In this document: positions 904 to 7,015 of the stretch, piece after piece
How positions within the stretch are numbered: the stretch's first letter is position 1
Layout of the letters: every line of letters begins with the position of its first letter
Program-made: the position numbers and the translations under genes
Source: Ilumatobacter sp.
GTDB taxonomy: Bacteria > Actinomycetota > Acidimicrobiia > Acidimicrobiales > Ilumatobacteraceae
DNA: 7,015 nucleotides
Direction of reading: 5' to 3'
Assembly (NCBI GenBank): GCA_029263275.1
Contig: JAJCXU010000495.1
Location: 1 to 7,015 of the forward strand
Notes under the pieces: model-generated
What the model saw: only the letters and a program-made list of their open reading frames with translations
Databases searched by the model: none
What the model was told of the DNA's origin: nothing

Positions 904-1085
904 GAAGATCTGCCTTCCGTGTTCGTTGGAGGTCGCAACCGCCCCGGGATCGGGACACTTGCATCGCGCCCACGCCAAAGCCTGAACGGACCCCGCAATG
1001 CTACGGCGGTCGATCCGGCATGCAACCCGCGACCCTGCAGTGGTTTGCCACCGAGCATCCTGGCCGCGGCAGATACCCTCGACGC
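904..1085. other. Divergent control region between rpsO and the ABC operon
   Basis: This 182-nt region holds the rpsO Shine-Dalgarno (913-918), a possible rpsO promoter (998-1025, minus) and the likely leaderless promoter of the ABC ATPase (1074-1079, plus). I see no riboswitch consensus (RFN or THI box), no small gene and no strong inverted repeat in it. Confidence 0.5.
998..1025 (-). promoter_or_regulatory. Candidate rpsO promoter
   Basis: On the minus strand TTGCAT (1020-1025) and TAGCAT (998-1003) are separated by 16 nt, giving a predicted start near 991 and a leader of about 90 nt. The -10 fits TANNNT; the -35 shares only TTG with the consensus. This is a weak prediction. Confidence 0.3.
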
Positions 1086-1088
1086 GTG
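1074..1088 (+). promoter_or_regulatory. Candidate leaderless promoter of the ABC transporter operon
   Basis: TACCCT (1074-1079) matches the actinobacterial -10 pattern TANNNT and is followed by 6 nt and the GTG at 1086. Transcription would start at or next to the first base of the start codon. There is no Shine-Dalgarno before this GTG, which agrees with a leaderless message. No clear -35 box is seen. Confidence 0.45.
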
Positions 1089-1883
1089 CCCGCCAGTCTT
1101 GCGATCTCCGACGTCTCGAAGACGTTTCCCGGAGGCGGCACCTCCCGCCGGCGCGGTTCCCTCGGCATCGAAGCACTCTCCTCGATCGACCTCGAAGTGC
1201 AACCCGGCGAGACCATCACCCTGCTCGGCCCATCGGGTTGCGGCAAGACGACGCTCCTCCGAATGATCGCTGGGCTGGAGACGCCGACCACCGGTTCGAT
1301 CTCGATCAGCGGCGACACTCCCCAATCGGCGCGCAAGCGCAAGCAGGTGGGGTTCATCCCGCAATCGCCAGCGCTACTCCCCTGGCGGTCAGTCAGAGCC
1401 AACGCTCGTCTGTTGCTCGATATCAATCGTGGTGCGTCGCCAGTCTCCCCGTCGGTGACCGTCGACCAACTCCTCGATGATGTTGGTCTGGCGGAATTCG
1501 CCGATGCCTTCCCGCACGAACTGTCTGGCGGCATGCAACAGCGCGTGGGGCTCGCCCGGGCCTTTGCGCTCGATGCTCCGCTCCTGCTGATGGACGAACC
1601 GTTTGCGGCGCTCGACGAGATCACTCGGACCGAGATGCGTCACCTGCTCGGACGGCTGACCGAGCCGCACGGCACCACCGTGGTGTTCGTGACCCATTCC
1701 ATTGCCGAAGCAGCGTTTCTGTCCGACCGGGTCCTGGTGATGTCATCACGCCCGGGACGGATCGTCGAACAGGTGGACATCGATCTCTCCCGACCACGAA
1801 ATCCGGACGTCGAAGACACCACCGAATTCTTCGAGGTCGCTGCGCACCTCCGACGCGCGTTGCACGCCGGGAGCGGCGCATGA
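1086..1883 (+). CDS. ABC transporter ATP-binding protein (TauB/SsuB/ThiZ-type importer)
   Basis: Cytoplasmic ATPase that powers a small-molecule importer. Counting from the GTG at 1086 it has 265 residues, with Walker A GPSGCGKT (48-55), Q-loop glutamine in [11 protein letters not shown] (Q93), signature LSGGMQQR (146-153), Walker B LLLMDEP (166-172), D-loop ALD and the switch histidine in FVTHSIAEA (H204). The SPALLPW stretch and the SRPGRI segment after the H-loop are typical of the nitrate/sulfonate/taurine/thiamine-precursor group. The frame is open back to 1020, but the family-like sequence begins at [12 protein letters not shown], and the GTG sits just after a TANNNT box, so I use 1086. 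Its stop overlaps the permease start in ATGA. It is the first gene of a three-gene cassette facing against the ribosomal cluster. Function as an importer ATPase is secure; substrate is unknown. Confidence 0.93.
1869..1873 (+). promoter_or_regulatory. Ribosome binding site of the permease gene
   Basis: GGGAG 6 nt before the ATG at 1880, inside the 3' end of the ATPase gene. Together with the ATGA overlap it indicates translational coupling. Confidence 0.6.
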
Positions 1884-2644
1884 ACACCGTGAGGCGCGTC
1901 AGCGCTCCGTTCGTCGGCATCGTCACCTTTCTGGTCGTGTGGGAGGCATTCGTCCGCATCTTCGACATCCGGCGGTTCATCCTCCTCGCCCCGTCCAAGA
2001 TCCTTCGCCAGCTGATCGATGCTCCCGGATTCTTCTGGGACAACACGCTCATCACCGCGCGGCACATGATGATCGGCCTCACGATCTCGGTGCTCTTGGC
2101 GATCTTGGTCGGCGCCGCGCTCACGGCATCGCGCTTCGCCGAAGAAGCCGTGCAGCCCATCTTGGTGCTGGTGCTGGTCACCCCCTGGGTTGCCTATTTC
2201 GGATCGGTCAAGGTCTGGCTCGGCCTGGGCGTGAGTCCCATCATCTTCCTGGCCGCCTTCACGGCGTTCCCGATCTTGACGTTCGGTGTCATCGGCGGGA
2301 TGAAGTCTGCGGACCCTTCGGCCCGCGAATTGCTGGCGAGCGTCGACGCCCGCCCCTGGGAAGTGCTGTGGCATCTGCGCCTTCCTGCAGCGCTGCCGTC
2401 GATCTTCACCACTGCCCGTTTCGCGGTCGGCATGTCGCTTGCGGCGACGTACTTTGCAGAGAGCCGGAGCCTGCGCACGACCGGGCTGGGCGCCATTGGC
2501 TCGCGAGCAGAGTTGCGACCGTTGACGGCCGCCGAGGTCGTCTGGACCACCGTGTTCTGCACCGCGGCACTCGGCATCACCGGGCTGATCCTGATCTCGG
2601 TCGCCGAGCGAGTACTGCTGAAGTGGCATGCCTCACAGCGGTGA
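1880..2644 (+). CDS. ABC transporter permease (BPD_transp_1 family, TauC/SsuC/ThiX-type)
   Basis: Inner-membrane channel subunit, probably a homodimer, passing substrate from the lipoprotein binding protein to the cytoplasm. The 254-residue protein shows about six hydrophobic segments (roughly 10-28, 64-83, 91-107, 118-140, 176-194 and 219-243). The cytoplasmic EAA loop is visible at about 149-174 as RELLASVDARPWEVLWHLRL then PAALPSI, with a degenerate start (RELLASVDA) but the conserved LPAALP end. This loop docks on the ATPase. The length is normal for the family. The gene overlaps the ATPase by 4 nt and is followed by 91 nt and the binding-protein gene. The ATG at 1880 has a good Shine-Dalgarno. 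Substrate cannot be read from the permease. Confidence 0.92.
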   Translation: MNTVRRVSAPFVGIVTFLVVWEAFVRIFDIRRFILLAPSKILRQLIDAPGFFWDNTLITARHMMIGLTISVLLAILVGAALTASRFAEEAVQPILVLVLVTPWVAYFGSVKVWLGLGVSPIIFLAAFTAFPILTFGVIGGMKSADPSARELLASVDARPWEVLWHLRLPAALPSIFTTARFAVGMSLAATYFAESRSLRTTGLGAIGSRAELRPLTAAEVVWTTVFCTAALGITGLILISVAERVLLKWHASQR

Positions 2645-2669
2645 CTCCCCTCGCACAGATCGACGCCGT

Positions 2670-2675
2670 TAACCT
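2670..2675 (+). promoter_or_regulatory. Possible internal -10 box before the binding-protein gene
   Basis: TAACCT fits TANNNT and would start a transcript near 2682, about 54 nt before the binding-protein ATG and 10 nt before the hairpin at 2692-2715. No -35 is visible, so this is a weak candidate for separate expression of the binding protein. Confidence 0.22.
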
Positions 2676-2691
2676 CACCGCCAACTCACCC

Positions 2692-2715
2692 GGGAGGGGT
2701 CGTTCTCGCCCTCCC
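2692..2715 (+). repeat. Inverted repeat between permease and binding-protein genes
   Basis: Perfect 7-bp arms GGGAGGG (2692-2698) and CCCTCCC (2709-2715) around a 10-nt loop, ending 11 nt before the Shine-Dalgarno GGAG (2727-2730). There is no U-tract, so it is not a standard terminator. Hairpins in this position in importer operons often protect or separately set the level of the binding-protein mRNA. Confidence 0.5.
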
Positions 2716-2735
2716 TCGAACGTTCTGGAGTCTGC

Positions 2736-3902
2736 ATGCGATCGCGTCACATCATCTCGTCCCTCGTCGTCGCCGCCACGGTGTTCGCTGCGTGTAGCAG
2801 CGATGACGCACCCGCAACCACCGGCGGATCCGTGGCCCCGTCCGCGTCCGACGCTTCAGCCACCGGTGGCGACACCGACGTCGTGGCCGGCGAAGCATTT
2901 CCCGGCGCTCGCTGTGAGGCCAACAAGGCCGCCGGCACCGTCACCTACCTCACGGGCTTCGACTTCGCCGCAGCTGCATCGATCGTCGACATTCTCGTTG
3001 CCGCCGACGCCGGCTACTACGAAGACCTCTGCTTGACGGTCGACATCAAGCCTGGCAGCTCGGTCGGCAACTACCCGCTGATCGCCAACAACAACGCCCA
3101 GTTCGCGTCGGGGGGATCATTCAGCGAAGTCGCCACCTTTGCCACTGCGAACGATGCCGAGTTCATCGTGACGGCCGTTGAGGGCCGAACGGCGATCGAT
3201 TCACTGATTGTGAAGCCCGACAGGAACATCAACTCGCTGGAAGACCTCGCCGGAACCACGATCGGCGTCAAGTTCAAGATCCCGCCGAGCGTCGAGGCGA
3301 TGCTGCTCAAGGCCGGTCTGACCATCGATGAGGACTACCAGACCGTTCCGGTCGAGGGGTTCGATCCGCTCGCACACATCGCCATCGAGCCCATTGTCGG
3401 CTTCCCCGGGTACAAGAGCAATGAGCCCGGTGCGCTCGAGCGCGCCGGAGTCGAGTTCGACCTGTTCGATCCTCTCGACTTCGATGTGCCCGGTTCGTTC
3501 GGTGCCATCTATACGAACGCTGCCTTCGTCGCCGACCATCCGACGGCGGCCGAGGACTTCATGCGTGCCACCATGCGTGGTCTCGCCGACGCCCTCGCTG
3601 ACCCGGACAGTGCTGCACAGGTCGCGATCGATCTGATCAACGCGAACGGCAATCCGATGTTCCTCCAGCCTGATGGCGAGGTCTTCCGATGGAACACCGA
3701 CGCAGCACTGATTCAGGAGACGACACCGGACGGTGTCGGCTTCGGCGTTCCCGACGGCGCTCAGCTCCAGGCCGAACTCGATGCGTACGCCGAGATCGGA
3801 ATCTTCGGCGACGCCGCAACGCCCGACGCTGCCTCGCGCCTCGGCAACGACATCATCGCCAGCATCTACGACGCCAACGCTCAGGTCATCTGGCCCGCAT
3901 AG
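2736..3902 (+). CDS. ABC transporter substrate-binding lipoprotein (NMT1/THI5-like)
   Basis: Extracytoplasmic receptor of the importer, anchored to the membrane by lipid. The 388-residue precursor has a signal peptide (MRSRHIISSLVVAATVFAAC) with a lipobox ending at C20, then a Ser/Thr/Ala/Asp-rich linker to about residue 52. The binding domain has features of the NMT1/THI5 group: DAGYYEDLCLTVDIKPG (91-107), a glycine-rich stretch AQFASGGSFSEV (121-132), LEDLAGTTIGVKF (168-180), and YKSNEPGALERAG (226-238), where the NEP triplet is typical of pyrimidine- and riboflavin-type receptors. It then has FMRATMRGLADALADPDSA (275-293). C60 and C99 are the only cysteines of the mature domain and could form a disulfide. 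The start has GGAG 5 nt upstream. The substrate is unknown; a thiamine or flavin precursor is a reasonable guess, but nitrate, sulfonate or other ligands are not excluded. Confidence 0.9.
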   Translation: MRSRHIISSLVVAATVFAACSSDDAPATTGGSVAPSASDASATGGDTDVVAGEAFPGARCEANKAAGTVTYLTGFDFAAAASIVDILVAADAGYYEDLCLTVDIKPGSSVGNYPLIANNNAQFASGGSFSEVATFATANDAEFIVTAVEGRTAIDSLIVKPDRNINSLEDLAGTTIGVKFKIPPSVEAMLLKAGLTIDEDYQTVPVEGFDPLAHIAIEPIVGFPGYKSNEPGALERAGVEFDLFDPLDFDVPGSFGAIYTNAAFVADHPTAAEDFMRATMRGLADALADPDSAAQVAIDLINANGNPMFLQPDGEVFRWNTDAALIQETTPDGVGFGVPDGAQLQAELDAYAEIGIFGDAATPDAASRLGNDIIASIYDANAQVIWPA

Positions 3903-3904
3903 CT

Positions 3905-4846
3905 TCAGCGAAGCAGGTCTGCGGCGTGCACGACGTCGAGGTCGAGTTGTTCCTTGAGCGCCTCGATTCCATCGAACTTGCGCTCGCTGCGAAGGAAGTG
4001 GCTGAACCGCACGCGGGCACGCTCGCCGTAGAGGTCGTCGTCGAAGTCGAGCAGATGCGCCTCGAGGAGCGAACTGTCAGCGTGCTCGTAGAACGTCGGA
4101 CGGCGTCCCAGGTTGATCGCGCACGGATGCGACTCGCCGGAGGGGCGTTCGTACCAGCCGGCATAGACGCCGTCTGCCGGGAGTGAAATCGTGTTCGGCA
4201 CTTCGACATTGGCGGTCGGAAATCCGATGAGACGACCACGTTGATCGCCGCTCACGACCGAGCCGCGAGCTTCGAAGTCGTGGCCAAGCATCTCGTTGGC
4301 TCGGGTGACGTCGCCGCCAGCAAGCGCTCGCCGGATGGCGGTGCTGCTCACGGGCTCACCCACACCGTCGACTCGTGCCAGCAGTTCCAGCGGCTCGACA
4401 TCAAAATCACTTTCGACTCCGAGCTTGCGCAACAGATCGACGTTGCCATCTCGATCTCGACCGAAATGGAAGTCTTCGCCGACGACGATCAACTGCGTGT
4501 TGAGACACTGCACGAACACTCGATCGACGAATGACTCTGGGCTCTCGGCGGCCTGCTCGTCGTTGAACGGCACCACGATCACGGCGTCGACGCCGGTCGC
4601 TTCGAGCAACTCCATCTTCTGATCTGGTGCGGTGAGCAGGAGCGGCGCTGACTCGGGTCGAACCACCGACGCCGGGTGTCGATCGAAGGTGACGACCGCG
4701 GACCGCGCACCGATGTCGTTCGCTCGCTGGCGAACGTGGGAAATGACCGCCTGGTGACCGAGGTGCACTCCGTCGTAGGCGCCAATCGTGATGACCGTGC
4801 GGTCGCCCGGGAACGCTGGCGACGACTGGTCTGTGATGATCTGCAC
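3905..4846 (-). CDS. ribF: Bifunctional riboflavin kinase / FAD synthetase
   Basis: Converts riboflavin to FMN with ATP and then FMN to FAD in the cytoplasm. The 313-residue product has the N-terminal FAD synthetase (nucleotidyltransferase) domain with GAYDGVHLGH (22-31; the family more often has F in place of Y), TFDRHP (53-58), GEDFHFGRDRDGN (123-135) and VSSTAIRRAL (166-175). The C-terminal riboflavin kinase domain has GRLIGFPTANV (204-214), INLGRRPTF (244-252) and LEAHLLDF with the probable catalytic glutamate at 262. Length is normal. The GTG at 4846-4844 has no Shine-Dalgarno but follows TAGCGT by 7 nt, suggesting a leaderless message. It comes after truB across 66 nt that hold a strong hairpin, and ends only 2 nt from the stop of the convergent binding-protein gene. 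Confidence 0.96.
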   Translation of the reverse strand: MQIITDQSSPAFPGDRTVITIGAYDGVHLGHQAVISHVRQRANDIGARSAVVTFDRHPASVVRPESAPLLLTAPDQKMELLEATGVDAVIVVPFNDEQAAESPESFVDRVFVQCLNTQLIVVGEDFHFGRDRDGNVDLLRKLGVESDFDVEPLELLARVDGVGEPVSSTAIRRALAGGDVTRANEMLGHDFEARGSVVSGDQRGRLIGFPTANVEVPNTISLPADGVYAGWYERPSGESHPCAINLGRRPTFYEHADSSLLEAHLLDFDDDLYGERARVRFSHFLRSERKFDGIEALKEQLDLDVVHAADLLR

Positions 4847-4859
4847 GGCGTCGACGCTA
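4846..4859 (-). promoter_or_regulatory. Candidate leaderless promoter of ribF
   Basis: TAGCGT (4854-4859, minus strand) is followed by 7 nt and the ribF GTG. The sequence after the box, CGACGC(C)GTG, is nearly the same as the one before the ABC ATPase start (CGACGCGTG). There is no Shine-Dalgarno before this GTG. The hairpin at 4861-4900 would cover the -35 region, where no consensus box is seen. Confidence 0.42.
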
Positions 4860-4860
4860 T

Positions 4861-4900
4861 CGGTGGCGGCCCACCAGGAACCATTCGCGGGCCGCCACCG
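4861..4900 (-). repeat. Strong hairpin between truB and ribF
   Basis: Perfect 12-bp arms CGGTGGCGGCCC (4861-4872) and GGGCCGCCACCG (4889-4900) around a 16-nt loop, starting 12 nt after the truB stop and ending 14 nt before the ribF start. No U-tract follows on either strand. It may act as a U-less terminator, as an mRNA 3'-end stabiliser for truB, or as a block upstream of ribF. It does not match the FMN riboswitch. Confidence 0.7.
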
Positions 4901-4912
4901 GCCCGCGTTGAC

Positions 4913-5782
4913 TCAGTTCTGGGGGACGACGACGGCCGGTTTGGCCTCGTCGCCAAACGCTTCGTACACGGCCACCAATGCACCGCCCGGATCGAACAGT
5001 GCCCATGGCCCCGCTCCCTCGAACGCCGGCAACACACGACCGTTGGCCACCAGTTCGGCGAGGTCATGAGTGATGTCGATGCGATCGAGCGTTCGCACGG
5101 CTTCTTCAACCGGAAGCAGCTCACAATCATCGGGCGCCTGTGCCTCTCCGATCGTGAACCGGCCGACCGCCGTGCGACGGAGGTTGCGGAGATGCGCACC
5201 GCCACCGAGGAGGGTGCCGAGGTCGGCGGCGAGTGTTCGGATGTAGGTGCCCGACGAACACTCCACTGCAGCCAGGAAGACGTGTGGCTCATCGGTCGGC
5301 ATCAGCTGGAACGAGTGAATGGTCACCGGTCGCGGCGGACGGTCGACCTCGATCCCCTGTCGGGCGAGTTCGTGCAGGCGCTTGCCGTCGATCTTGATCG
5401 CCGAGACCATCGGCGGGATCTGTTCGATGTCGCCGACGAAGTGTTCAGCAACGATTGCCTGAGCATCTTCCAGCGTGACACCAGCCATGTCGTGGGTGGC
5501 GGTGACCTCGCCGTCGGCGTCAAGCGTGTTCGTCTCGGTGCCGAGAACGATCTCACCCAGGTACGCCTTCTTGGTCTTCTCGACGAACCGCAGCAACTTG
5601 GTGGCCTTGCCAACAGCGACGACGAGCACACCGGTGGCGCTCGGGTCGAGCGTGCCACCGTGACCGACTTGGCGTTCGTTGAACCGTCGGCGGAGCATCC
5701 CCACGACGTCGTGGCTCGTGACCCCGGTGGGCTTGTCGACCACAGCAATACCGTGGGTGGTGGCTGGCTTCTTGCGTGCCAT
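4913..5782 (-). CDS. truB: tRNA pseudouridine(55) synthase
   Basis: Isomerises uridine 55 in the T-loop of tRNAs to pseudouridine. The product has 289 residues. It begins MARKKPATTHGIAVVDKPTG, followed by the family signature GHGGTLDPSATGVLVV (41-56), whose aspartate D46 is the catalytic nucleophile. Next come KAYLGEIVLGTETNTLDADG, IPPMVSAIKIDGKRLHELAR and SSGTYIRTLAADLG, all usual TruB motifs. The C-terminal part (AELVANGRVLPAFEGAG onward) matches the short C-terminal domain of actinobacterial TruB rather than a full PUA domain. GGAAG (5789-5793) lies 6 nt before the ATG. It follows rbfA by 18 nt and so is surely co-transcribed with it. It ends in TGA. Confidence 0.97.
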   Translation of the reverse strand: MARKKPATTHGIAVVDKPTGVTSHDVVGMLRRRFNERQVGHGGTLDPSATGVLVVAVGKATKLLRFVEKTKKAYLGEIVLGTETNTLDADGEVTATHDMAGVTLEDAQAIVAEHFVGDIEQIPPMVSAIKIDGKRLHELARQGIEVDRPPRPVTIHSFQLMPTDEPHVFLAAVECSSGTYIRTLAADLGTLLGGGAHLRNLRRTAVGRFTIGEAQAPDDCELLPVEEAVRTLDRIDITHDLAELVANGRVLPAFEGAGPWALFDPGGALVAVYEAFGDEAKPAVVVPQN

Positions 5783-5800
5783 GTCGAACTTCCGGTGGCG

Positions 5801-6202
5801 TCAGTCGGTGGCTTCGGGCGACCGGTAGCTGTCGCGCTCGCGATCAGCCCGGAGGATGGTGTCGATGCGCTCCGCCGACCGGATGACGACGTCAGGCCGG
5901 AAACTGAGGATCGGTGTCTTCTTCGCTTTGATCTGTCGAGCGATGGACGACTGGAGCCGCACTCGATGCTCATCGAGTGCTTCGACGATCTGGTCGTCTC
6001 CGTTCTCATCAGTCAGAGAGTCGAAGAAGACGATCGCCCGATTCAGTTCGGGGTCGACGTCGATCGACGTGATCGTCACGAATTCCAAACGTTCGTCATC
6101 GAGGCGCACGAGGTCCTCGGCAATGATCTCGCGCAAGGTCTCGCCAACGCGTGCGCTTCGAGGGTATTTCTGGCCGGTGTTTCGGCCGCGTCGCTGTGCC
6201 AT
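5801..6202 (-). CDS. rbfA: 30S ribosome-binding factor A
   Basis: RbfA is a KH-domain protein that binds immature 30S subunits and helps 16S rRNA 5'-end maturation. The 133-residue product shows YPRSARVGETLREIIAEDL (13-31), ITSIDVDPELNRAIVFF (44-60), and the characteristic RLQSSIARQIKAKKTP then ILSFRPDVVI. Length is normal. AAGGA (6209-6213) sits 6 nt before the ATG. In most bacteria infB directly precedes rbfA; here a selenoprotein gene and two palindromes lie between them. The gene ends in TGA, 18 nt before truB. Confidence 0.96.
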   Translation of the reverse strand: MAQRRGRNTGQKYPRSARVGETLREIIAEDLVRLDDERLEFVTITSIDVDPELNRAIVFFDSLTDENGDDQIVEALDEHRVRLQSSIARQIKAKKTPILSFRPDVVIRSAERIDTILRADRERDSYRSPEATD

Positions 6203-6222: not shown

Positions 6223-6253
6223 GTTACTGATGGTGCCCGGCACCATCACTAAC
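6223..6253 (-). repeat. 31-nt palindrome after the selenoprotein gene
   Basis: GTTA-C-TGATGGTGCC (6223-6237) mirrors GGCACCATCA-C-TAAC (6239-6253) around one central base, with a single mismatched pair (6227/6249). It begins 3 nt after the selenoprotein stop and ends 20 nt before rbfA. It shares the central core GTGCC-N-GGCAC with the palindrome at 6930-6960. No U-tract follows, so it could be a U-less terminator, a mRNA processing or stability hairpin, or a protein-binding site. Confidence 0.75.
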
Positions 6254-6256
6254 AGA

Positions 6257-6916
6257 TCAGGTGTAGTCGGGTGCCGCTCGGTTTGAGCGCTTGAGTTCGG
6301 CGACGCCGGACGTCGCCAACTTCTCGACGGCGTCCCACAGTTCAGATGCTTCCTCGCCCTTCGGCGCCTTCGAGATGACGGGACCGAAGAAACTGCCTTC
6401 ACGATCCGAGCCCGGCCGGAATGTGAGGATCGGCGTGCCGACGTCCTGACCCGTGCGACTCAACGCCAACTCGGTCTCAGCTCGCAGGTACTCGTCGTGG
6501 CTCTCGTCATCGGCGTCGCTCAAGTAGGCCGCTGAGAACCCGGCTTCGTCGAGCACTGCTTCGAGGAATGCATCGTTGTCGGCACGAGCCTCGTCGCGAC
6601 GGTTGTTCAGGTGGAGCGCCTCGCCGAGCGCGGTGTACCAGGCGCCGACAGCTTCGCCGTCTTCCTGCAGCCGAATCGCGTTGGCAATGCGGAGCCCTTT
6701 GTGGCCCAGGTAGTGGCCTGCTCGATACGCAGGCGTGTACCACTCGCCTTGCTGGTCCTCGTTGAGAATCCACAGCGAGATGAATCGCCAGTCGACCTCG
6801 TACGAGCGCTGTTGTTGCACATCCACCACCCAACGGGAGGTGATCCAGGCCCATGGTCAAACGGGATCCCAGAAGAAGTCCAGGTCCGGCTGCGTGGTCG
6901 CGTCAGGATGAGCCAT
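6257..6916 (-). CDS. Selenocysteine-containing DsbA-fold oxidoreductase (Rv2466c-like)
   Basis: Predicted cytoplasmic thioredoxin-fold redox enzyme related to the mycothiol-dependent reductase Rv2466c. The frame runs from ATG 6916-6914 to TGA 6259-6257 (219 residues) if the internal TGA at 6859-6857 is read as selenocysteine (Sec20). Around it the translation is DFFWDPV-U-PWAWITSRWV, where Rv2466c relatives have DPLCPWCWITSRW, so the TGA stands at the nucleophilic cysteine. The second cysteine is alanine, and there is no other cysteine in the protein. Later family features are VDWRFISLWILNED (32-shifted beta strand region), the helical insert, the cis-proline loop DVGTPILTF (P162), FFGPVISKAPKGEEASELWD and the C-terminal ELKRSNRAAPDY. 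A SECIS-like hairpin lies at 6824-6842. TAGGTT 6 nt before the ATG suggests a leaderless message; there is little Shine-Dalgarno. It lies between infB and rbfA, bracketed by related palindromes. A default gene call would start at GTG 6829 and lack the active site. A nonsense-mutated pseudogene is the main alternative, but conservation on both sides makes it unlikely. Confidence 0.85.
6824..6842 (-). promoter_or_regulatory. Candidate bacterial SECIS element
   Basis: On the minus strand CACC-T-CCC (6842-6835) pairs with GGG-T-GGTG (6831-6824), giving 3 bp, one T-T mismatch and 4 bp, closed by the loop GTT (6834-6832). The loop begins 22 nt after the in-frame TGA. Known bacterial SECIS hairpins lie directly after the UGA inside the coding region, carry a G at the start of a small apical loop, and in E. 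coli fdhF have an unpaired U a few pairs below the loop; all three traits are present. SelB would bind this hairpin. Confidence 0.75.
6857..6859 (-). other. In-frame TGA read as selenocysteine (Sec20)
   Basis: TGA in place of the first cysteine codon of the CPWC motif. It cannot be a general reassignment, because infB, rbfA, truB, ribF, rpsO and this gene itself all stop at TGA and tryptophan is TGG throughout. Confidence 0.85.
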
Positions 6917-6929: not shown

Positions 6930-6960
6930 CGGTCAGTCTGTGCCAGGCACAGACTGACCG
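6930..6960 (-). repeat. Perfect 31-nt palindrome between infB and the selenoprotein gene
   Basis: Fifteen-base arms (6930-6944 and 6946-6960) mirror each other perfectly around one base (6945), with centre GTGCC-A-GGCAC. It begins 5 nt after the infB stop and ends 13 nt before the selenoprotein start. As RNA it gives a 14-bp stem with a 3-nt loop. No U-tract follows. It could end the infB transcript in the U-less manner described for actinobacteria, or serve as an operator for the downstream gene. Confidence 0.85.
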
Positions 6961-6965
6961 GGACG

Positions 6966-7015
6966 TCAGCTACGAGGAATTTCTTGGTCTTCGAAGGTTT
7001 CGATGATGTCGCCAG
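6966..7015 (-). CDS. infB: Translation initiation factor IF-2, C-terminal end
   Basis: Only the last 15 codons and the TGA stop are inside the window. They read GDIIETFEDQEIPRS, which fits the extreme C-terminus of IF-2 domain IV (usual form GDxIExFE followed by a short charged tail). IF-2 delivers fMet-tRNA to the 30S subunit as a GTPase. The call rests on this short stretch plus position: infB normally precedes rbfA-truB-ribF. The stop is 5 nt from the perfect palindrome. Confidence 0.8.
   Translation of the reverse strand, partial: GDIIETFEDQEIPRS

What the first reader, a model, noticed from the sequence alone, without database searches (positions are those of the whole stretch)
6857..6916. 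Hidden selenoprotein: in-frame TGA at the catalytic cysteine of an Rv2466c-like enzyme
Reading upstream from the obvious open frame (starting at GTG 6829) without stopping at TGA recovers a complete N-terminus: ATG at 6916, DFFWDPV, TGA, PWAWITSRWVVDV. The Rv2466c family has DPxCPWCWITSRW here, so the TGA falls exactly on the nucleophilic cysteine. The frame is kept on both sides with no indel, and a SECIS-like hairpin follows. Neighbouring genes use TGA as a normal stop. Automatic annotation would give a truncated 190-residue protein lacking the active site. Selenocysteine is known in some DsbA-like and FrnE-like proteins from large surveys, so it has precedent in the superfamily; I cannot tell whether this particular branch has been described.
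Basis: partly seen in the sequence, partly recalled or inferred. Interest (0 to 1): 0.95.

Follow-up and report, generated by a model that had tools for sequence, protein, structure and literature searches.

The report
Hidden selenium-dependent mycothiol-type reductase gene
This bacterial gene carries a stop codon exactly where its relatives encode their catalytic cysteine; the codon is very likely read as selenocysteine, which would make the product a selenium version of the mycothiol-linked redox enzyme Rv2466c that automatic annotation cuts short.

Summary
On the minus strand, 6916 to 6260, a 219-residue frame has a single internal TGA (6859-6857) on the nucleophilic cysteine of an Rv2466c-like (PF22234) protein. 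The nearest named relatives are Ilumatobacter MAGs. The same TGA sits on the same codon in four further genomes of the genus and in another genus; a paralogous clade has it in at least 21 more loci. A hairpin with a GUU/GGU triloop at a fixed distance after the TGA has 7-8 of 8 pairs in 26 of 27 TGA loci but in 1 of 48 Cys loci, shows compensatory changes and, in this genus, frozen codons. The assembly has selA, the start of selB (cut by a contig end) and a selD with its own TGA; tRNA-Sec is not found in this 70% complete assembly but is in the nine other TGA-carrying genomes of the first sample. So this is very likely a selenoprotein gene (about 0.93). Its protein has no cysteine, so a one-residue, mycothiol-coupled mechanism is inferred (about 0.6), not shown. 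DsbA-like selenoproteins with a DxxUP motif are already catalogued and may include this family; no held paper contains both Rv2466c and selenoprotein. Selenium incorporation itself is untested.

The parts
6260..6916 (-). Coding sequence of the predicted selenoprotein, 219 aa with one Sec (residue 20) and no Cys
   Evidence: PF22234 E 2.4e-40 with C for U
6857..6859 (-). In-frame TGA predicted to encode selenocysteine, on the nucleophilic Cys column (Cys19 of Rv2466c)
6824..6842 (-). SECIS-like hairpin CACCUCCC-GUU-GGGUGGUG, nt 15-33 after the TGA, apical triloop at 6834-6832, one U-U mismatch
6257..6829 (-). 190-aa ORF (GTG start) that standard gene calling reports, lacking the active site
   Evidence: 12 of the 120 best database hits are 187-191 aa long and begin just after this point
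6257..6259 (-). Ordinary TGA stop of the same gene
6966..7015 (-). End of the upstream gene, infB by its likeness to the end of the infB-like ORF of L122 and by position in G017; ends in TGA
5801..6202 (-). rbfA, directly downstream; order infB-gene-rbfA-truB-ribF also in Ilumatobacter L122

Best explanation
The gene is an Rv2466c-family (mycothiol-dependent reductase, DsbA/thioredoxin-fold) gene whose catalytic cysteine codon is a TGA, very likely decoded as selenocysteine by SelB at the hairpin that begins 14 nt downstream. Shown by sequence: the frame, the position of the TGA, the conservation on both sides of it, the conserved and covarying hairpin, and selA, selD and the start of selB in the genome. 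Inferred: SelB with tRNA-Sec binds the hairpin and inserts Sec; where Sec is not inserted, translation would end after 19 residues. Inferred: the single selenolate at the start of helix 1 attacks a disulfide, an S-mycothiolated protein or another oxidised substrate, and since the protein has no Cys or second Sec, the resulting mixed selenenylsulfide would be resolved by an outside thiol, most likely mycothiol (about 0.6), regenerated by mycothione reductase. The likely role is repair of thiol oxidation under oxidative stress, as reported for Rv2466c and the related NCgl2478. The confidence given is for the selenocysteine reading.
For: Family: PF22234 E 2.4e-40; solved Rv2466c chains E about 2e-32; model pLDDT 88, residue 20 just before helix 21-36, the ten best PDB chains are Rv2466c or its M. 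leprae homologue. Column: 27 TGA and 48 Cys loci, all with DPx[U/C]P. Constraint before the TGA: pN/pS 0.063 over nine codons in six TGA orthologues, so the N-terminus is translated in frame. Hairpin: at least 7 of 8 pairs in 26 of 27 TGA loci against 1 of 48 Cys loci; restricted to loci with the same peptide T[SA]RWVV, 25 of 25 against 1 of 8; 12 cells changed on both sides and a covariation score of 0.221, 0 of 500 shuffles as high for either; in five congeners 6 of 7 hairpin codons identical against 28 of 126 elsewhere, p 0.001 (three most distinct: 6 of 7 against 50 of 130, p 0.02). Machinery; the 19 other TGA genomes found in the class sample all carry selB, against 221 of 395 overall; p about 7e-6 with the own genome counted as selB-positive and without correction for kinship. 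Role: passages of PMC8280269 and PMC11841060. MshC-like ligase in the genome.
Against: No tRNA-Sec over the cut-off in this assembly (best 45.8 bits, a tRNA-Cys), and selB is cut at residue 202 with the rest not found. The hairpin taken alone is not unusually stable (z +1.0). Random synonymous codons give as many pairs in 9-11% of draws for nine of the 11 TGA loci tested and in 46% for the other two. The number of pairs with a both-side change (2) is not unusual (342 of 500 shuffles). In the paralogue clade the strict codon test is not significant (1 of 4 against 1 of 43, p 0.16), though the share of the commonest codon is higher in the hairpin (0.92 against 0.65, p 0.0008). One TGA locus, L079, has 3 of 8 pairs; one Cys locus, L080, has all 8. 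The MshC-like protein scores 405 bits, under the MshC cut-off of 485, and 341 for CysS, just over that cut-off of 340. Substrate, mycothiol use and selenium content are untested.
Confidence: 0.93

Rival explanations
1. The TGA is a real nonsense mutation; the gene is a pseudogene or makes only the 190-residue form from GTG 6829.
For: Standard gene calling yields that form; 12 of the 120 best database hits are 187-191 aa.
Against: The same TGA is kept in five genomes of the genus at 76-94% identity and in another genus; codons before the TGA are under strong purifying selection (pN/pS 0.063); the hairpin codons are frozen in the genus; a form without the first strand and the active site would lack the catalytic residue.
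Confidence: 0.04
2. Sequencing or assembly error: the true codon is TGC or TGT.
For: One base separates TGA from both Cys codons; the genome is a 70% complete bin in 672 contigs; a 90% identical Cys homologue exists (P0002).
Confidence: 0.01
3. The TGA is read through by another route: a near-cognate tRNA puts in Cys or Trp, or the genome reads TGA as sense.
For: Some bacteria read TGA otherwise (general knowledge).
Against: infB, this gene and rbfA end in TGA; the 19 other TGA genomes found in the class sample all have selB; the hairpin and selA/selD point to Sec.
Confidence: 0.02
4. Selenoprotein, but not mycothiol-coupled: the Sec enzyme works with thioredoxin, or is an enzyme of another kind in the wider DsbA/FrnE/kappa-GST group.
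For: Mycothiol use is untested and the MshC call is inconclusive; PMC8280269 reports that thioredoxin can also regenerate the relative NCgl2478 (passage); some relatives are named 2-hydroxychromene-2-carboxylate isomerase.
Against: Best family and best solved structures are Rv2466c, not those groups.
Confidence: 0.35

Closest known systems
Rv2466c / Mrx2, mycothiol-dependent reductase (PF22234; PDB 4NXI, 4ZIL, 5XUR)
   Same: Fold, DPx-[C/U]-PW motif with the nucleophile at the start of helix 1, a shared VGTP segment (taken as the cis-proline loop, recalled), length
   Different: Nucleophile codon is TGA; the resolving Cys22 is Ala; no Cys anywhere in the window's protein
DsbA-like selenoprotein form 2 (motif DxxUP, PF01323, MDP6049977.1; PMC13188914 Table 1, citing PMC5029168)
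   Same: Motif DPVUP fits DxxUP; paralogue L093 and orthologue L035 pass the PF01323 cut-off
   Different: The window's protein scores 23.2 against the PF01323 cut-off 25.6; the entry is named crotonase/enoyl-CoA hydratase family and its sequence could not be fetched; no crotonase among nine ORFs scanned beside six Sec paralogues (42 ORFs were listed there)
DsbA 3 selenoprotein of the Global Ocean Sampling survey (UxxV, 5 sequences; PMC2398784, passages)
   Same: DsbA-fold selenoprotein without a second Cys in the motif
   Different: UxxV, not UxxA; sequences not seen
Cys orthologue in the same genus (G006, L019) and database protein P0002
   Same: 73% and 90% identical, same motif otherwise but for one residue (L019 CPFA; P0002 CPWA)
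   Different: Cys in place of Sec; L019 hairpin only 5 of 8 pairs

Membership tests
Bacterial selenoprotein (SelB/SECIS dependent) | In-frame TGA aligned with a conserved redox Cys of homologues | tested here: met
   27 TGA and 48 Cys loci, same column
Bacterial selenoprotein (SelB/SECIS dependent) | Hairpin just downstream of TGA, apical loop of 3-14 nt with G among its first two bases (criteria recalled, coded) | tested here: met
   Loop GUU starts at nt 23 after the TGA; covariation
Bacterial selenoprotein (SelB/SECIS dependent) | selA, selB, selD in the genome | tested here: met
   selA 411 bits (cut-off 267.9), selD 372.7 (125); selB only its first 202 residues, 215 bits (cut-off 242.25), cut by the contig end
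Bacterial selenoprotein (SelB/SECIS dependent) | selC (tRNA-Sec) in the genome | tested here: inconclusive
   Not found in the 70% complete assembly; over the cut-off in the 9 other TGA-carrying genomes of the 60, anticodon tca in G005
Bacterial selenoprotein (SelB/SECIS dependent) | Selenium in the protein | not testable with these tools
   Needs 75Se or mass spectrometry
Rv2466c-like (PF22234) | Score over the curated cut-off | tested here: met
   139.1 bits, cut-off 27
Rv2466c-like (PF22234) | CPWC motif with resolving Cys | tested here: not met
   UPWA; 21 of the 24 Cys loci of the first search are CPxA too, so this is a trait of this branch of the family
Rv2466c-like (PF22234) | Mycothiol-dependent activity | not testable with these tools
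   MshC-like ligase present but under the MshC cut-off and just over that of CysS
DsbA-like selenoprotein form 2 (DxxUP) | DxxUP motif | tested here: met
   DPVUP
DsbA-like selenoprotein form 2 (DxxUP) | PF01323 over its cut-off | tested here: not met
   23.2 against 25.6; met by L093, L079 and L035
DsbA-like selenoprotein form 2 (DxxUP) | Homology to MDP6049977.1 | not testable with these tools

The most novel reading that the evidence does not exclude
Acidimicrobiia run a switchable selenium version of the mycothiol reductase system: Rv2466c-type enzymes have gone between Sec and Cys many times (at least 10 changes on a quick tree), leaving a relict insertion hairpin in a Cys form. The Ilumatobacter branch has stripped the enzyme to a single selenol with no cysteine at all, a monoselenol mycoredoxin and the first selenoenzyme tied to mycothiol.
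Probability: 0.45. Interest if true: 0.7.

Novelty: new member of a known kind. Interest (0 to 1): 0.52.

Why it matters
If the Sec reading is right, databases hold truncated, active-site-less versions of this enzyme (12 of the 120 best hits have the length and start expected), and NCBI's curated models did not name it (no NCBIfam match for the window's protein or two Sec paralogues). It would join selenium use with the mycothiol redox system of Actinomycetota. Close Sec/Cys pairs, as near as 90% identity, and a Cys gene that still has the hairpin (L080) would make the old question of why Sec is gained and lost directly testable in one enzyme and one genus.

Tried and rejected
Rfam scan of the window at E up to 1: nothing. 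Search for tRNA-Sec in the own assembly: the eight hits fetched are tRNA-Cys, Leu, Ser (three), Gly (two) and Ala; a ninth, weaker hit was not fetched. Rest of selB in the own assembly: not found. A free-energy comparison of unconstrained hairpins separates Sec from Cys only weakly (p 0.03), because these genomes are GC-rich and stable hairpins are common in Cys loci too; a fixed-position pair count was used instead. That position was taken from the TGA loci themselves, so its excess there is partly by choice; the peptide-matched and codon tests were added for that reason. G368 and G612, listed with one TGA each, were dropped as Sec candidates: before the start codon and at the terminal stop. 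G368 stays in the 48 Cys loci as L083. The idea that the DxxUP entry labelled crotonase is the paralogue clade was probed by scanning nine neighbouring ORFs of six such loci: no crotonase, so it stays open. The 20 Cys control loci were picked by me from the longer list of matches, not at random. Papers: Rv2466c with selenoprotein gave 0; selenoprotein with nitroreductase and DsbA 0; selenoprotein with Acidimicrobi 2, unrelated by title and abstract start; selenoprotein with mycothiol 19 and mycoredoxin with selenocysteine 5, none on this by title and abstract start; wider searches, listings only apart from the papers named. Only open-licence PMC papers are held. The tree is a quick one without bootstraps.

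Full report
What is there. On the minus strand a frame runs from ATG 6916 to a TGA stop at 6259-6257, interrupted only by TGA at 6859-6857. Read with U there it gives 219 residues. The protein belongs to PF22234, Rv2466c-like (139.1 bits, cut-off 27). The closest solved sequences are Rv2466c entries. An AlphaFold2 model from an alignment of 13 sequences (pLDDT 88, pTM 0.87) places residue 20 right before helix 21-36, and the ten best PDB chains are Rv2466c and its M. leprae homologue, TM 0.71-0.77 by query length. The gene is followed by rbfA, truB and ribF in the window. In Ilumatobacter L122 ORFs nearly the same as these follow it and an infB-like ORF precedes it (read by eye). In G017 of another genus infB (798.7 bits) precedes it and truB and ribF follow.

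Whose it is. The four nearest named records are uncultured Ilumatobacter MAGs; all four have the same TGA. The own genome is a bin of 672 contigs, 69.96% complete.

Distribution. Of 60 genomes (own plus 59 relatives) 52 have a match; 11 rows contain one TGA and all 11 fall on the catalytic Cys. One further row had a TAG in a 25-residue fragment and was not used. Orthologues of the window's gene with TGA: the own genome, G004, G005, G008 and G009 of the same genus, and G017 of another; G006 of the genus has Cys; for G001, G002, G003 and G007 of the genus only matches of 33-39% identity were found. A second clade, motif UP[WF]C, has TGA in 20 of the loci fetched for the comparison, and L079 stands apart; L150, found last, is one more of the second clade. 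In the class sample (395 genomes) 219 have a match at E 1e-10 and 21 TGA rows were listed, 20 on the Cys column; the list was cut. In a phylum sample of 396 genomes, 88 have a match and only three rows, all Acidimicrobiia, have TGA on the Cys column. L127, a Cys form, is frameshifted after ITSRW. On a quick tree of 75 proteins, the redox residue masked, Sec and Cys change at least 10 times, and well-supported branches force at least 6; direction of change is not known. Class names rest on the record titles.

Hairpin. After the TGA of the window comes CACCUCCC-GUU-GGGUGGUG, nucleotides 15-33 downstream. With the loop position fixed, 26 of 27 TGA loci form 7 or 8 of 8 pairs (mean 7.5) and 1 of 48 Cys loci does (mean 3.75). 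Part of this comes from the peptide; among loci with the same peptide T[SA]RWVV it is 25 of 25 against 1 of 8. Two pairs change on both sides: one is G-C, C-G or U-A, the other G-C, C-G or U-G. For cells changed and covariation score 0 of 500 shuffles are as high, though 342 of 500 are for the count of pairs changed; with the partner slid by 1-3 columns at most 56% of cells pair, against 93.5%. In five congeners 6 of 7 hairpin codons never vary synonymously against 28 of 126 elsewhere (p 0.001); four near Cys orthologues show 0 of 4 against 25 of 88. In the paralogue clade the strict test is not significant (1 of 4 against 1 of 43), while the share of the commonest codon is 0.92 against 0.65 (p 0.0008). 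Against: the single sequence is not unusually stable (z +1.0); per locus, random synonymous codons give as many pairs in 9-11% of draws, 46% for L079 and L090; L079 lacks the hairpin; the Cys gene L080 has it, which I read as a relict of a recent Sec-to-Cys change since its sister L077 has TGA.

Coding on both sides. Among six TGA orthologues the nine codons before the TGA have pN/pS 0.063, the nine after it 0.114 and the next 36 0.158 (pairs summed, not independent). A dead N-terminus would not show this.

Machinery. selA (411 bits, cut-off 267.9) is followed by selB, which runs off the contig after 202 residues, 84% identical to the selB of G005. selD (372.7 bits, cut-off 125) has its own in-frame TGA in GAG-U-GCK. 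tRNA-Sec is missing from the assembly but over the cut-off in 44 of the 60 genomes, including the nine other TGA carriers. selB is over its cut-off in 40 of the 60; of those nine carriers G004 is just under it at a short frame (241.9 of 242.25). In the class sample selB was found in 221 of 395 genomes and in the 19 TGA carriers besides the own genome, whose cut selB misses the threshold used; p about 7e-6 if genomes were independent and the own one counts as positive.

Mechanism. Published passages describe Rv2466c and NCgl2478 as mycothiol-dependent, with nucleophilic Cys19/21 and resolving Cys22/24, and reduction of mycothiolated disulfides by NCgl2478 through a monothiol route (PMC8280269, PMC11841060, passages only). 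The window's protein has no Cys, so only a one-residue route with an outside thiol is open; its TGA-carrying orthologue L018 has one Cys far from the motif. Mycothiol is the likely thiol, as an MshC-like ligase is present: 405 bits, under the cut-off 485, and 341 bits for CysS, just over 340; a separate, clearer CysS exists. This step is inference.

Known or new. The 2026 review PMC13188914 (section 7 parts 1-2 of 3 and reference list part 2 read) lists 119 families or subfamilies, among them DsbA-like form 1 (UxxC) and form 2 (DxxUP, MDP6049977.1, citing PMC5029168). DPVUP fits the second, and members of the paralogue clade pass PF01323, so a Sec Rv2466c-like protein may already be in that entry, unnamed. 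PMC5029168 counts 45 DsbA-like selenoproteins in 41 organisms (passages); PMC2398784 lists DsbA 1-3 as UxxC, UxxC and UxxV (passages). PMC9312934 shows a DsbA-like UxxC entry (passage), PMC12013277 had no hit for the terms asked, and PMC1794560 counts four DsbA-like selenoproteins (passages). Haft and Tolstoy 2025 was not held. Hence: a new member of a known kind, with moderate interest, and more if the mycothiol link is shown.

Noticed in passing
window 6930-6960 and 6223-6253: Two palindromes (15-nt arms, 100% and 93% complementary) with core GTGCC-N-GGCAC flank the gene; the core occurs at 52 places in the own genome against 9 for the reversed pattern, so it is a dispersed palindrome.
   Followed up: partly
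L080 (G006:C1:127267-127881): Cys paralogue that keeps all 8 pairs of the Sec-type hairpin; sister to the TGA gene L077: a likely relict SECIS.
   Followed up: yes
window 1020-3902 (+): ABC transporter genes on the opposite strand between rpsO and ribF: ATPase and permease by NCBIfam, the third gene without a match. Best names are SaoA and SaoP, of a selenoprotein-linked transporter, but far below the cut-offs (185.8 of 360; 72.1 of 295).
   Followed up: no
L079 (G039:C126): A distant Rv2466c-like gene with TGA on the Cys column (UPWCY) but without the fixed-position hairpin (3 of 8 pairs).
   Followed up: partly
L044 (G000:C173:2494-3414): selD of the same genome has an in-frame TGA (GAG-U-GCK), a second predicted selenoprotein.
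   Followed up: partly
L142:1887-3092, L143:1791-2963 (G419, G306): A gene with FrhB/FdhB domains (F420 hydrogenase/dehydrogenase beta subunit) lies just upstream of the Sec paralogue in two genomes.
   Followed up: no
L122:2871-5937: The infB-like region is split into two overlapping frames (2871-4673 and 4555-5937), perhaps a frameshift in that MAG.
   Followed up: no
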